Shown here piece after piece: positions 61-4,889 of a stretch of DNA of 31,161 bases. Under the pieces are notes generated by a model. It saw nothing but the letters and a program-made list of their open reading frames with translations. It had not been told where the DNA came from and made no database searches. Position numbers and translations under genes: made by a program. How positions within the stretch are numbered: the first letter of the stretch is position 1; every line of letters starts with the position of its first letter. The stretch spans positions 1 through 31,161 of IMG/VR virus record IMGVR_UViG_3300030090_006274. One strand, 5' to 3'. The DNA comes from a virus.

Positions 61-207
61 ATGAAAATAGAGACAAAAGGAAAAACTCTAAAGCAAATTG
101 AAGTAGAAGTTCTTAAGGCAGTTTTAAAAGAAAATAACGGAAACAAAAAAAAGACTGCTGAACAATTAGAAATTGGCAGGAGTACAATTTATAGATTAAT
201 AAAATGA
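61..207 (+). CDS. Stand-alone Fis-type helix-turn-helix protein (48 aa)
   Basis: This tiny protein is essentially just the C-terminal DNA-binding helices of the Fis/NtrC family (HTH_8). A first helix (KTLKQIEVEVLKAVL, about residues 8-22) is followed by NGNKKKTAEQLEIGRSTIYR at 26-45, matching the family pattern of N-x-x-x-A-A-x-x-L-G-I-x-R-x-T-L-Y-R. There is no sensor or ATPase domain. It probably binds DNA as a dimer and could regulate this phage operon or host genes. The start at 61 follows an A-rich leader with no Shine-Dalgarno. The stop overlaps the ATG of the next gene (ATGA), suggesting coupled translation. The fold assignment is good; the role is inference. Confidence 0.75.
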   Translation: MKIETKGKTLKQIEVEVLKAVLKENNGNKKKTAEQLEIGRSTIYRLIK

Positions 208-383
208 AAAAATATGAATATCAAACAATAAGAGTAAAAGATGTTTGCATCAGAAAAGACAAAGGATATGAACTTCATTTAGAGGAAGAATTAAACAAGT
301 TAGGTTATAGAGGTTATAAAGTCGTAGGCATTACCAAGAATAGATTTAGCGATATAATTATAATGGAAAAAACAAAAGAATAG
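204..383 (+). CDS. DUF4177-like small protein (59 aa)
   Basis: The protein starts MKKYEYQTIRV, then has LEEELNKLGYRGYKVVGI around residues 26-43 and ends in a short beta strand (DIIIMEK). This order (strand, helix with L-N-x-L-G-x-x-G-W/Y, strand, terminal I-x-x-x-K) is that of the DUF4177 family, small bacterial and phage proteins of unknown role. The usual Trp after the second Gly is Tyr here. It is translationally coupled to the Fis-like gene by an ATGA overlap. It is followed by a structured 100-base gap, so these two genes may form the end of a transcription unit. Confidence 0.65.
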   Translation: MKKYEYQTIRVKDVCIRKDKGYELHLEEELNKLGYRGYKVVGITKNRFSDIIIMEKTKE

Positions 384-408: not shown

Positions 409-432
409 TCAAGGCTTTGTTTTTAGCCTTGA
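409..432 (+). terminator. Stem-loop with T-rich loop
   Basis: An 8-bp perfect stem (TCAAGGCT at 409-416, AGCCTTGA at 425-432) encloses an 8-base T-rich loop. It lies in the only sizeable non-coding gap of the left operon (384-484). It is not followed by a T tract, so it may be an attenuator or part of a tandem structure with the hairpin at 443-464 rather than a full terminator. Just upstream, TGCTAG occurs as a direct repeat at 385-390 and 403-408. Confidence 0.4.
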
Positions 433-484: not shown

Positions 485-886
485 ATGTATAATTTTAATT
501 TCACACTAAAAGACACAACTCCCTATGGAAATGTCTATTTTTCAAGGGCTTTTGATATTCAAGGGATAGTAAGGGAAATGTGGCTAAAAGAAAACAATTT
601 ATTAAGTTTTCTTAAAGATTATCAGTTAATAACAAAAAAGGCTTATAATGAATATATTAAAGAATGTTTCCCCTTTGTTGACTACAAAGTAGAATTTATA
701 GTTAAAAAAATTAATAACACATCTTTTATTTTTGAAATAGAAATAACAGATCAAGAAACAGGAGAAATCCATTGTAAAGGGGAGCAGAAAATATGTTTTG
801 CCAAAGCAAATAAACTTGTCCCTATTCCAGAGCTATTTAAAAAGGCTTTAATTCTAAATAAAAATAAAAATGGGAAATTCAATTAA
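485..886 (+). CDS. Hotdog-fold thioesterase, enediyne/PKS (DynE7/CalE7) type
   Basis: A 133-residue protein of normal length for a single hotdog domain. The N-terminal block D10-T-T-P-Y-G15-N16-V-Y-F followed by Q26-G27-x-x-R30-E31-M32-W-L closely resembles enediyne polyketide thioesterases (G-N-V-Y-Y, then W-Q-G-x-C-R-E-M-F-L). The rest fits the fold: a strand near 65-75, F-I-F-E-I-E-I at 81-87, a turn at D-Q-E-T-G-E and a G-x-Q-K-I-x-F strand at 99-105. The P-I-P-E-L tail at 113-117 is also usual. These enzymes hydrolyse acyl or polyketide thioesters; the substrate here is unknown. The gene overlaps ssb by 17 bases, so it belongs to the phage operon and is not a stray host fragment. Such a gene is unexpected in a podovirus. 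The family call is strong; the role is open. Confidence 0.8.
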   Translation: MYNFNFTLKDTTPYGNVYFSRAFDIQGIVREMWLKENNLLSFLKDYQLITKKAYNEYIKECFPFVDYKVEFIVKKINNTSFIFEIEITDQETGEIHCKGEQKICFAKANKLVPIPELFKKALILNKNKNGKFN

Positions 887-1268
887 TCGTGTAATTTTAA
901 TAGGAAATTTAGGACAAGATCCAGATATTAGACAAACATCAGACGGCAGAGAGTTAGCAAATTTTTCTCTTGCTACAAATGAGAAATGGGAAGCTAAAGA
1001 TGGCACGCCCAAAGAAAAAGTAGAATATCATAAAATTGTAGTCTTCAATCAAGGCTTAGTAAATGTAGTAAAAAACTATGTTAAAAAAGGCACTAAGCTA
1101 TATATTGAGGGACAGCTACAAACTAGAAAATGGACTGATAACAACGGAGTAGATAAATACACTACCGAGATTGTTTTACAAAATTTCAATTCTAATTTAC
1201 AACTTTTAAATAAAGTTGAGAAACAAAAGAATATTGATGAGCCAAACGATTTTGAGGCTAATTTTTAA
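870..1268 (+). CDS. ssb: Single-stranded DNA-binding protein
   Basis: A bacterial-type SSB of 132 residues with one OB fold (about residues 4-112). The opening I-N-R-V-I-L-I-G-N-L-G-x-D-P, then A-N-F-S-L-A-T-N-E, the H-K-I-V-V-F strand and K-G-T-K-L-Y-I-E-G-Q-L-Q-T-R-K-W are all diagnostic. It coats single-stranded DNA during phage replication or recombination. The C-terminal tail is short and acidic and ends D-F-E-A-N-F, a variant of the D-I-P-F tip that recruits host partners. The start at 870 inside the upstream gene gives the standard N-terminus, so the 17-base overlap is real. Confidence 0.95.
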   Translation: MGNSINRVILIGNLGQDPDIRQTSDGRELANFSLATNEKWEAKDGTPKEKVEYHKIVVFNQGLVNVVKNYVKKGTKLYIEGQLQTRKWTDNNGVDKYTTEIVLQNFNSNLQLLNKVEKQKNIDEPNDFEANF

Positions 1269-1974: not shown

Positions 1975-2309
1975 AAAAATGTAAGTGGAGTAGTATTGCT
2001 AAAAAAGTTTTAAGCAAAGAAGATATAGATGTTATAGGAGAAAAAGAAGCTATAAGACTTATTAACAATATACTTTCTGAATCAAGAGACGGAGTATTGT
2101 TTTTGGATGATCTGATAGGTGTTTCTAATAATTATAGAAAGATATTAAATAAACTTATAGAAAAAAATTGGCTTTTTGAAACAACAACTAATCGTGGAAC
2201 AATATATCATATACATCCACTAAAGCAGTTGTGGTATTGTTCTTTTTTATTAAATCCACAACCACCAAAATTTAAATGGATAAGCCCTATTAATACTAAC
2301 AATGATTAA
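1971..2309 (+). CDS. Possible winged-helix protein (112 aa)
   Basis: Residues about 22-76 read as a winged helix: helices at E-K-E-A-I-R-L-I-N-N-I-L and L-D-D-L-I-G, a putative recognition helix N-N-Y-R-K-I-L-N-K-L-I-E-K-N-W-L, then a two-strand wing (L-F-E-T-T-T-N-R-G-T-I-Y-H-I). The aromatic, proline-rich tail (L-L-N-P-Q-P-P-K-F-K-W) is unusual. A DNA- or partner-binding role is plausible, but this is inferred from pattern only. It overlaps the next gene by 8 bases. Confidence 0.5.
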   Translation: MKKCKWSSIAKKVLSKEDIDVIGEKEAIRLINNILSESRDGVLFLDDLIGVSNNYRKILNKLIEKNWLFETTTNRGTIYHIHPLKQLWYCSFLLNPQPPKFKWISPINTNND

Positions 2310-2829
2310 AACAATAATAGCATTTTTACTACTACCATTAACAGCAAATGCATTTATTGGAGTTTCAAATACAGTCTTTGCTCAAGATTATAAAGAGTAT
2401 AACACTCAAAAAATAGAGAATGGTTTATCGTTAAACTTAAACTACTATAAACCTATTTCTGAAAAATATATTATAGGAGTATCAACAAATAGACTAACAA
2501 GCCAATTTTTAAGGGCTGAGGGCTATTTAATAAGAAAAGATGATAAAGTAGCCATAAAAACTAAAACAAAGCTTACAACCGATTCTATAGGACTTTTCAG
2601 AGGGTTTAATAAATATTTAGTTGGGGGTAATGTTATAAATGCTAGAAAAGATAGTAACTTGTATCTAAGTAATACAAAGATCAACAATAATAAAGAAAGT
2701 GAGTTGCTTTTTGGCGTTTCCTTTGGTAAAATTCTTGATGGTGGTGTTTTGACTGCTACCTATATTTTTAAGAATGAAGATTTTGACTTAAAGAGAGGAA
2801 TTAATTTTAGTTATGCTTTTAAATTCTAA
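2302..2829 (+). CDS. Secreted, outer-membrane beta-barrel-like protein (175 aa)
   Basis: An N-terminal signal peptide (MIKTIIAFLLLPLTANA, cleavage likely after residue 17) leads into a protein dominated by alternating polar/aromatic strands. Examples are G-L-S-L-N-L-N-Y-Y, Y-I-I-G-V-S-T-N-R, S-E-L-L-F-G-V-S-F-G and G-V-L-T-A-T-Y-I-F. The C-terminus is I-N-F-S-Y-A-F-K-F, ending in Phe with alternating hydrophobics as outer-membrane barrels do. Phages rarely make outer-membrane proteins; those known often mask or alter the receptor against superinfection. That role here is inference. It sits in the early/middle operon, not with the virion genes. The signal peptide call is strong and the barrel call moderate. 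Confidence 0.6.
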   Translation: MIKTIIAFLLLPLTANAFIGVSNTVFAQDYKEYNTQKIENGLSLNLNYYKPISEKYIIGVSTNRLTSQFLRAEGYLIRKDDKVAIKTKTKLTTDSIGLFRGFNKYLVGGNVINARKDSNLYLSNTKINNNKESELLFGVSFGKILDGGVLTATYIFKNEDFDLKRGINFSYAFKF

Positions 2830-3660: not shown

Positions 3661-3974
3661 CAGAAAAGCAAAAAAAAGAAAGTAAAAGAGAATCAAATAG
3701 AAAATATAGACAATCTGAGAAAGGGAAAATCGCTGTAAAAAGATATAAAAAATCTGAGAAATATAAAAAAGCCTCTAAAAAATATAAACAATCTGAGAAA
3801 GGAAAAAAAACTCAGACAAGATACCTTTTGAGAAAAAAAAAAGAAAAAATAAAAATTAAATTATTGGTATTTGTGTTTCAAATGCTTAATTTAGGATATA
3901 AAATTAAAGTGAGTAAAATTATTGATTATTCAATAAATGGTTATTTGTCTAAAATTAGATTAGTCAATGAATAA
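3654..3974 (+). CDS. Lysine-rich 13-residue repeat protein (106 aa)
   Basis: The N-terminal half holds three copies of a 13-residue unit of the form K-x-Y-x-x-S-E-K-x-K-x-x-x (around residues 17-57). The C-terminal half has a hydrophobic helix (L-L-V-F-V-F-Q-M-L) and an I-D-Y-S-I-N-G-Y-L-S-K-I-R tail that looks like a small HTH. Similar repeats often precede HNH-type domains in phage proteins, but no HNH residues are seen here. With its extreme basic charge it probably binds nucleic acid. Confidence 0.65.
   Translation: MLTEKQKKESKRESNRKYRQSEKGKIAVKRYKKSEKYKKASKKYKQSEKGKKTQTRYLLRKKKEKIKIKLLVFVFQMLNLGYKIKVSKIIDYSINGYLSKIRLVNE
3705..3803 (+). repeat. Three 39-bp in-frame tandem repeats
   Basis: CAATCTGAGAAA at 3711, its one-base variant at 3750 and the exact form at 3789 are spaced 39 bases apart. 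This is three tandem units encoding the 13-residue repeat of the lysine-rich protein. Period and frame agree, so this is repeat growth within a gene and not a regulatory iteron. Confidence 0.7.
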
Positions 3975-4446
3975 ACAAATATACATTAAACGTCTTCTGA
4001 GGTATACTAAAGAGGGGCAAGGGTTTTATTGCTCACAAGTCTTTAAGATCAATGAAGGGTTAGATAAGCCCATTAAGGAGCCATTGTTAAGAAATAATAA
4101 ACCCCTATTTTTTTTAGAGAGACAGAAAGTAGCAATACCTAAAATGTCATATTCATTAGGAGCAGATTTTACAGGGAAGCATCAATGGGTGAAAATCTTA
4201 AATGTTCCAGAACGATTTAATATAGAAATTCACGCAGGAAATTACTTAAGAAATACTATGGGGTGTCCTTTATTAGGGCAAAACTATGATGAAAATAAAG
4301 AATATAGCAATCATGATTTAATAATTGGTGAAAGTCAAAACAGTTGCAATTGGTTTAGAAATGATTTTTTATTAAATGATAATAATAAAAAACAAACAAA
4401 GAAGGTAGATCAAGATGAGGTAATAGGTCATATAACTATTGCTTGA
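3967..4446 (+). CDS. DUF5675 family protein (159 aa)
   Basis: The sequence follows the DUF5675 layout: an I-K-R-L opening, an L-F-F-L-E-R segment, I-P-K-M-S-Y-S-L at 58-65, then V-P-E-R-F-N-I-E-I-H89-A-G-N-Y at 80-93 and M-G-C100-P-L-L-G-Q. H89 and C100 are the family's strongest positions and resemble the H...G-C layout of L,D-transpeptidase-like folds. DUF5675 proteins are common near phage lysis or tail genes but have no proven reaction. Here the gene is last in the plus operon and meets the lysis cassette tail to tail. A cell-wall role is possible but unproven. Confidence 0.75.
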   Translation: MNKQIYIKRLLRYTKEGQGFYCSQVFKINEGLDKPIKEPLLRNNKPLFFLERQKVAIPKMSYSLGADFTGKHQWVKILNVPERFNIEIHAGNYLRNTMGCPLLGQNYDENKEYSNHDLIIGESQNSCNWFRNDFLLNDNNKKQTKKVDQDEVIGHITIA

Positions 4447-4558: not shown

Positions 4559-4768
4559 TTATTTACAAATCTCTCTATACTTCAACTCATTTTTCGTTAA
4601 TTTATCTATATTAATCAAAGATAAATTAACTGTTTCTTTCTCACTAAAAATAATAGGGTTATAAACTAGACAAAAAGCACTACTATTTTTTTCCGTGCAA
4701 GATGTCAAGTTTATCATTAAGAGACATATTGCTGACCCTTTTATCAATAGTTTTAGCTTTTCCAACAT
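4559..4768 (-). CDS. Rz1-like outer-membrane spanin lipoprotein
   Basis: A 69-residue lipoprotein. A basic N-terminus and hydrophobic segment end in the lipobox L21-T-S-C24, so lipidation at C24 is expected. After it comes C-x-x-Y-N-P-I-x-x-S-x-K-E-T, then K-N-E-L-K-Y-x-x-I-C, the C...PI...T...N...C layout common to Rz1-like proteins of many phages. It would pair with the inner-membrane spanin to fuse the envelopes at lysis. Its first 86 bases lie inside the Rz-like gene in another frame, the classic embedded spanin arrangement. It is the last gene of the late operon. Confidence 0.8.
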   Translation of the reverse strand: MLEKLKLLIKGSAICLLMINLTSCTEKNSSAFCLVYNPIIFSEKETVNLSLINIDKLTKNELKYREICK

Positions 4769-4889
4769 CTTTTAAAGTTTGTTTATTAATTTCATTTTTT
4801 AACGTGGTTTTCCCACTTCTCTTTCCTAACTGGAATATAGCAAATATAGCTCCAAAGATTGCTAGTATTTTGTAAATTAAACTTTTCAT
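4683..4889 (-). CDS. Rz-like inner-membrane spanin (short)
   Basis: A 68-residue protein with an N-terminal membrane anchor (I-Y-K-I-L-A-I-F-G-A-I-F-A-I-F, residues about 5-19). A polar, mostly helical periplasmic part of about 48 residues follows. The position directly upstream of and overlapping the Rz1-like gene, plus the anchor-helix layout, supports the i-spanin call. It is much shorter than lambda Rz. Its start overlaps the holin candidate's stop by ATGA. Confidence 0.7.
   Translation of the reverse strand: MKSLIYKILAIFGAIFAIFQLGKRSGKTTLKNEINKQTLKDVGKAKTIDKRVSNMSLNDKLDILHGKK

What the first reader, a model, noticed from the sequence alone, without database searches (positions are those of the whole stretch)
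485..886. Phage-encoded enediyne-type hotdog thioesterase overlapping ssb
The G-N-V-Y-F, Q-G-x-x-R-E-M-W-L blocks match the DynE7/CalE7 branch of hotdog thioesterases, otherwise known from polyketide and fatty-acid pathways. It is translated in a 17-base overlap with ssb, so it is a true phage gene. A podovirus using a thioesterase could be changing host lipids or acyl-carrier traffic, or clearing a toxic acyl product. The family match is read from sequence; the purpose is inference.
Basis: partly seen in the sequence, partly recalled or inferred. Interest (0 to 1): 0.75.

Follow-up and report, generated by a model that had tools for sequence, protein, structure and literature searches.

The report
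Phage hotdog protein with altered active site
A small bacterial virus carries a gene for a "hotdog-fold" protein that normally cuts or binds activated fatty acids; its closest bacterial relatives are not antibiotic-making enzymes but proteins encoded beside membrane sensor kinases, and the virus copy has changed a residue that never varies in those relatives.

Summary
The gene at 485-886 is real and overlaps ssb by 17 bases. It encodes a hotdog protein: Pfam 4HBT_2 E=1.3e-12, AlphaFold model pLDDT 93, nearest solved folds among enediyne thioesterases. So the fold and broad branch are right.

"Enediyne-type" is only partly right. The nearest relatives (up to about 43% identity, mostly Burkholderiales, also Gammaproteobacteria, Desulfobacterota and one Bacteroidota genome) form a sister branch: 94.5 bits against its profile, 40.3 against an enediyne profile built from only four sequences. 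In 79 of the 80 nearest genome loci the hotdog gene lies beside a 7TM-type sensor gene, usually a histidine kinase, 78 of them within 300 bp; the four enediyne-type loci checked have none. In Desulfobacterota the hotdog can be fused to a PilZ domain.

The phage protein keeps the active-site Arg (R30, = EspE7 R35), N16, Q26, G27 and E31, but has Thr at position 12, where all 80 relatives have Asn and YbgC enzymes the catalytic Asp. Hydrolysis is therefore unproven.

The gene is accessory: a relative with a 71% identical ssb lacks it, and no homologue turned up in 50,697 phage records or in IMG/VR pattern scans. Best reading: a captured acyl-ligand hotdog, plausibly acting on host acyl signalling or lipid traffic.

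The parts
485..886 (+). hotdog-fold (4HBT_2) gene, 133 aa
   Evidence: Pfam 4HBT_2 E=1.3e-12; AF2 pLDDT 93.2 with a hotdog order of elements, long helix 20-36 and strands 47-57, 66-74, 80-89, 95-107; Foldseek TM about 0.87 to enediyne thioesterases
518..520 (+). codon for Thr12, the position that is Asn in all 80 nearest genome relatives (catalytic Asp in YbgC-type enzymes)
   Evidence: alignment; YbgC motif from PMC12794305
572..577 (+). codons for Arg30-Glu31; Arg30 aligns with EspE7 R35, the residue changed to Ala in PDB 9ccr
   Evidence: alignment (9ccr reads A where P0001 reads R30); invariant in 37 of 37 non-redundant relatives
870..886 (+). 17-base overlap of hotdog gene and ssb
870..1268 (+). 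ssb (132 aa)
   Evidence: phrog_44 E=1.4e-38
409..432 (+). hairpin followed by a T-rich stretch, terminator-like, just upstream of the hotdog gene
   Evidence: a second hairpin, GGAGGG 444-449 with CCCTCC 458-463, read by eye; suggests a new transcription unit, not tested
204..383 (+). upstream neighbour, DUF4177-like (just below Pfam cut-off)
   Evidence: PF13783 E=4.4e-5, 24.1 bits vs cut-off 25
61..207 (+). 48-aa Fis-type HTH protein
   Evidence: PF02954 HTH_8 E=7.3e-12

Best explanation
The gene encodes a hotdog-fold protein captured from a bacterium. It belongs to the branch that bacteria encode beside 7TM-type sensor genes, the sister of the enediyne thioesterases rather than that group itself. 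Most likely it forms the usual hotdog dimer and engages an acyl thioester (acyl-ACP or acyl-CoA) or its acyl product in the tunnel around N16, Q26-G27, R30 and E31, made together with ssb during infection. By binding or slowly hydrolysing that ligand it would alter acyl-derived signalling or lipid supply in the host. Shown: gene, fold, branch, conserved residues, the Asn-to-Thr change at position 12, accessory status. Inferred: dimer, ligand class, timing of expression, effect on the host. Not determined: whether it still hydrolyses thioesters (about even odds).
For: Pfam, fold and PDB matches. Nearest genomic relatives are 397 loci in GTDB genomes, best 80 kept, up to about 43% identity. 79 of those 80 have a 7TM-type sensor gene adjacent, 78 within 300 bp; the domain is Pfam HisKA_7TM in six of seven neighbours tested, one of them below cut-off. 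P0001 scores 94.5 bits vs that hotdog profile, 40.3 vs the four-member enediyne profile. R30 aligns with EspE7 R35. The ligand idea rests on the family: a YbgC-like hotdog thioesterase of Sinorhizobium hydrolyses acyl-ACP/acyl-CoA and contributes to the infochemical 2-tridecanone (PMC12794305); the non-catalytic hotdog FapR responds to malonyl-CoA (PMC516016).
Against: Position 12 is Thr; even the D-to-N change at this position inactivates YbgC enzymes (PMC12794305), though enediyne-branch enzymes naturally carry Asn there. Position 22 is Ala where relatives have Tyr, Phe or His. The phage record holds no HisKA_7TM and no ketoacyl synthase, and the host is unknown, so a sensor partner in the host is not shown. 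The branch of P0001 is very long (4.85) and its exact place in the tree is weakly supported (80/75).
Confidence: 0.5

Rival explanations
1. It is an active thioesterase carried as an auxiliary metabolic gene, hydrolysing host acyl-ACP or acyl-CoA to shift fatty acid or membrane supply; Thr12 replaces Asn functionally, with R30 and E31 in the helix doing the chemistry.
For: All other invariant positions of the family are kept (N16, Y18, Q26, G27, R30, E31, T50, G99, Q101, P115), which is hard to explain if the site were under no selection. From general knowledge, other hotdog classes use a helix Glu/Asp as catalyst.
Against: The residue at the Asp/Asn position is changed, Tyr22 is lost, and YbgC enzymes with D changed to N at this position are inactive (PMC12794305).
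Confidence: 0.3
2. It is a non-catalytic hotdog, comparable to FapR in having given up catalysis, that acts as a decoy or ligand trap: it sequesters an acyl signal or mimics the host hotdog partner of a 7TM-type sensor kinase, so that the host signalling pathway is blunted.
For: Linkage of 79 of 80 relatives to a 7TM-type sensor, PilZ-hotdog fusion in Desulfobacterota (protein 8), GGDEF or HD output on some sensors, Thr12 and Ala22 only in the phage copy. Non-catalytic hotdog precedent: FapR (PMC516016).
Against: No sensor or partner in the phage; host not known to have the module; in a sample of 395 genomes from the phylum of the Bacteroidota genome only that genome had a strong match with an adjacent sensor, so the module is rare there.
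Confidence: 0.3
3. It is an enediyne-type thioesterase captured from a polyketide cluster, with hydrolysis and decarboxylation chemistry as in CalE7.
For: Top PDB sequence and fold hits are enediyne thioesterases.
Against: Those are the nearest solved structures, not the nearest sequences. In the genome scan 79 of the nearest 80 loci lie beside sensors. Both the Asn and the Tyr that I recall as important in CalE7 are changed. No ketoacyl synthase in the record.
Confidence: 0.05
4. It is a passenger without selected function, recently acquired and drifting.
For: Absent from the related phage record G002 and from the other records tested.
Against: Intact frame in a compact 37 kb genome, tight overlap with ssb, composition like the phage (26% G+C against 30%), 10 of 11 invariant positions kept.
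Confidence: 0.1

Closest known systems
Sensor-linked 4HBT_2 hotdog proteins of Burkholderiales, Gammaproteobacteria, Desulfobacterota and one Bacteroidota genome (no published name found)
   Same: Highest sequence similarity (up to about 43% identity, 94.5 bits against their profile); shared LKD-[ST]-x(3)-GN-x-YFxR-x-F-x(2)-QG-x(2)-RE block
   Different: Bacterial copies lie beside a 7TM-type sensor gene and always have Asn at position 12; the phage copy lies beside ssb and has Thr12 and Ala22
Enediyne thioesterases CalE7, DynE7, SgcE10, EspE7
   Same: Same fold (TM about 0.87), GN-x-Y and QG-x-x-RE blocks, active-site Arg
   Different: About 25% identity; Asn and Tyr positions changed; no polyketide synthase nearby
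YbgC / 4HBT class I acyl-CoA thioesterases
   Same: Hotdog fold, DT-x(3)-G start of the active loop
   Different: Catalytic Asp is Thr12 and the catalytic-loop His is Phe19 in the phage protein
FapR (non-catalytic hotdog regulator)
   Same: Precedent for a hotdog protein that responds to an acyl-CoA without hydrolysing it
   Different: FapR has an N-terminal HTH and is restricted to Firmicutes; no sequence relation tested
HTVC010P-type pelagiphages
   Same: Portal 26-28% and major capsid 33-35% identity, same podovirus-type structural genes
   Different: HTVC028P, the one tested, lacks a 4HBT_2 gene; Shine-Dalgarno motifs at 3 of 49 genes here versus 11 of 26 in HTVC028P

Membership tests
4HBT_2 hotdog family (PF13279) | Pfam score above the curated cut-off | tested here: met
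   48.7 bits vs 25.5, residues 8-122
4HBT_2 hotdog family (PF13279) | Hotdog fold: long helix wrapped by an antiparallel sheet | tested here: met
   AF2 pLDDT 93.2; Foldseek TM about 0.8-0.9 to many hotdog thioesterases
Enediyne thioesterase (DynE7/CalE7/SgcE10) | Sequence closest to this group | tested here: not met
   40.3 bits vs enediyne profile, 94.5 vs sensor-linked profile; enediyne profile had only four members
Enediyne thioesterase (DynE7/CalE7/SgcE10) | Active-site Arg in the QG-x-x-RE helix | tested here: met
   R30 aligns with EspE7 R35, PDB 9ccr R35A
Enediyne thioesterase (DynE7/CalE7/SgcE10) | Asn in the active loop (ETN) | tested here: not met
   Thr12 in the phage; Asn in the four enediyne-type sequences, the aligned PDB enediyne enzymes and all other relatives aligned
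Enediyne thioesterase (DynE7/CalE7/SgcE10) | Encoded with an iterative polyketide synthase | tested here: not met
   no ketoacyl synthase in the 37 kb record
Enediyne thioesterase (DynE7/CalE7/SgcE10) | Hydrolysis of ACP-bound polyene or beta-keto thioester | not testable with these tools
   needs an enzyme assay
Sensor-linked hotdog branch | Sequence closest to this group | tested here: met
   tree placement 80/75 with a long branch
Sensor-linked hotdog branch | Invariant N12, N16, Y18, Q26, G27, R30, E31, T50, G99, Q101, P115 | tested here: inconclusive
   10 of 11 kept, N12 is Thr
Sensor-linked hotdog branch | 7TM-type sensor gene adjacent | tested here: not met
   no HisKA_7TM in the phage record; neighbour is ssb
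YbgC / 4HBT class I thioesterase | Catalytic Asp in DTD-x(2)-GVV-x-H-x(2)-Y | tested here: not met
   P0001 reads DTT-PY-GNV-Y-F-SR-A (motif from PMC12794305)

The most novel reading that the evidence does not exclude
Bacteria of several phyla use an undescribed two-part acyl-signal system, a 4HBT_2 hotdog protein plus a 7TM-type sensor with kinase, HD or GGDEF output, and this phage carries an active-site-altered copy of the hotdog part to read or silence that signal during infection.
Probability: 0.15. Interest if true: 0.85.

Novelty: new variant of a known kind. Interest (0 to 1): 0.5.

Why it matters
Phage-encoded hotdog proteins are barely known: no PHROG family matches this one or its relatives, and only two weak viral fold matches were found. 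If it acts on acyl ligands, it would be a route by which a very small phage changes host lipid supply or acyl signalling. The linkage found on the way, a hotdog gene beside a 7TM-type sensor in 79 of 80 loci and in several phyla, points to an acyl-linked sensing module that I could not find described in the open-access papers searched, and it can be tested in culturable Duganella, Massilia or Paraburkholderia.

Tried and rejected
Single-sequence scans with P0001 of viral contigs and genome contigs found no relative; an alignment scan of viral contigs also found none, while the same alignment found 397 loci in genomes. The tool works from short exact patterns, so the negative viral result is not exhaustive. 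Search of 50,697 phage records by tblastn: no match at E up to 1. Vibrio plasmid hits (E about 0.1, 27.8%) were set aside as weak. A Bacteroidota host was considered because Shine-Dalgarno motifs are almost absent (3 of 49 genes), but Bacteroidota promoter motifs were only three in 31 kb and the structural proteins resemble those of proteobacterial phages; host left open. Joining the record's ends to test circularity was inconclusive: no terminal repeat, and the joined frame stops at the joint. The CalE7 paper is not held, so the roles of its Asn and Tyr rest on my memory, and the Arg on the existence of the EspE7 R35A structure.

Full report
Observation. The ORF at 485-886 is present as described and overlaps ssb by 17 bases. 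The record is a 37,005-base virus record of which the window is bases 1-31161. Its minus-strand genes are those of a podovirus: terminase, portal, major head protein, tail proteins and an internal virion protein. Portal and capsid resemble HTVC010P-type pelagiphages at 26-28% and 33-35% identity.

What the protein is. Pfam 4HBT_2 matches at E=1.3e-12 over residues 8-122. The AlphaFold2 model, made with 31 relatives from genome loci, has mean pLDDT 93.2. Foldseek places it among hotdog thioesterases, with enediyne enzymes first: an Actinomadura verrucosospora thioesterase, CalE7, EspE7, SgcE10, DynE7, at TM about 0.87. In the viral structure library only two matches pass E 0.001, both partial, one of them named a PaaI-type phage protein.

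Which branch. A scan of GTDB genomes with an alignment found 397 loci, of which the best 80 were kept. Most are Burkholderiales (Duganella, Massilia, Paraburkholderia, Ralstonia), with some Gammaproteobacteria, Desulfobacterota and one Bacteroidota genome. A profile of the non-redundant members scores P0001 at 94.5 bits; a profile of four enediyne-type sequences scores it at 40.3 (the second profile is thin, so the size of the gap is rough). In the tree P0001 lies with the sensor-linked group except the Bacteroidota sequence, on a long branch of 4.85 with support 80/75.

Neighbourhood of the relatives. Reading the loci showed a conserved membrane protein next to the hotdog gene. Seven of these neighbours were scanned with Pfam. 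HisKA_7TM, the N-terminal 7TM region of histidine kinases, was found above cut-off in five, below cut-off in one and not in the seventh, which still aligned with the others in my own profile. One sensor carries an HD output domain and the Bacteroidota one a GGDEF domain without a kinase. A profile of the N-terminal region finds it in 79 of 80 loci, 78 of them within 300 bp of the hotdog gene, in 10 loci on the same strand and in 69 on the opposite strand. The four enediyne-type loci have none, though they were fetched with shorter flanks. The 80 loci are not independent, since most are from one order, but gene order and fusion differ between phyla: in Desulfobacterota one hotdog protein carries a PilZ domain. 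More distant hotdog relatives found in later genome samples often lack an adjacent sensor, so the linkage marks this branch and not the whole family. For one gammaproteobacterial kinase the best NCBIfam model is LuxN, over the kinase core only and far below its cut-off, so this says little about ligand.

Active site. Across 37 non-redundant relatives (31 genome loci and six plasmid loci, four of these enediyne-type) eleven positions never vary: N12, N16, Y18, Q26, G27, R30, E31, T50, G99, Q101, P115. The phage protein keeps all but N12, which is Thr. In all 80 genome loci the residue is Asn; at position 22, Ala in the phage, they have Tyr (76), Phe (3) or His (1). The search patterns allowed Thr as well as Asn at position 12, so this is not produced by the search. 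In YbgC enzymes position 12 is the catalytic Asp, and its change to Asn inactivates them (PMC12794305). R30 aligns with R35 of EspE7, the residue mutated in PDB 9ccr. I recall that the CalE7 work assigned catalytic roles to the equivalent Asn, Arg and a Tyr, but that paper is not held. So the phage site is altered at one or two of three important positions, and activity cannot be assumed.

Is the gene fixed in related phages? The record IMGVR_3300025120_000300 shares a stretch with the window (ssb 71%, the gene at 2302-2829 87% identity) but has short unrelated ORFs where the hotdog gene would be, and no 4HBT_2 match anywhere in its 31 kb. Seventeen other viral records, some of them fragments, and HTVC028P also have none. 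A closer relative by terminase and portal (88-90%) is only a 4.8 kb fragment without this region. The gene is therefore accessory.

Mechanism. The best-supported account is a captured acyl-thioester or acyl-ligand hotdog, made with ssb, acting on host acyl signalling or lipid traffic. The steps shown are gene, fold, branch, conserved residues and the altered position. Ligand, timing, dimer and host effect are inferred. Precedents exist on both sides: a hotdog thioesterase that contributes to a methylketone infochemical (PMC12794305) and a non-catalytic hotdog regulator, FapR (PMC516016). The same review notes that in Bacillus a hotdog gene, comA2, is cotranscribed with the response regulator gene comA, without known role, which is a loose parallel to the sensor linkage seen here.

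Novelty. New variant of a known kind: a known fold and superfamily, in a phage, from a branch whose link to 7TM-type sensors I did not find described. Only open-access papers could be searched.

Noticed in passing
L028-L107 (genome loci), e.g. L029:3884-5809, L063:3662-7039, L071:926-3608: 4HBT_2 hotdog genes lie next to 7TM-type sensors with kinase, HD or GGDEF outputs in several phyla; in Desulfobacterota (L063) the hotdog is fused to a PilZ domain.
   Followed up: partly
2302-2829 (+): Protein of 175 aa with a likely signal peptide and a C-terminal Phe, resembling a small outer-membrane barrel; 87% identical in IMGVR_3300025120_000300 while the structural genes of the two records differ, so the two share a module.
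   Followed up: partly
61-207 (+): 48-aa protein that is little more than a Fis-type helix-turn-helix (PF02954 E=7.3e-12).
   Followed up: no
window, 49 gene starts: Shine-Dalgarno motifs precede only 3 of 49 genes, against 11 of 26 in pelagiphage HTVC028P; starts are preceded by A/T-rich stretches, which hints at a host that does not rely on Shine-Dalgarno.
   Followed up: partly
3967-4446 (+): DUF5675 protein (E=1.6e-10), 69% identical in IMGVR_3300025120_000300.
   Followed up: no
4559-4889 (-): Two overlapping small ORFs (4559-4768, 4683-4889), one with a lipoprotein-like signal, arranged like an Rz/Rz1 spanin pair.
   Followed up: no
L130:1456-2511 (-): Gammaproteobacterial protein with two tandem hotdog domains of this branch (two separate matches to P0001).
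   Followed up: no
L113 and L133: Hotdog domain of this branch inside very long open frames (2013 and 2676 aa), which would fit megasynthases.
   Followed up: no
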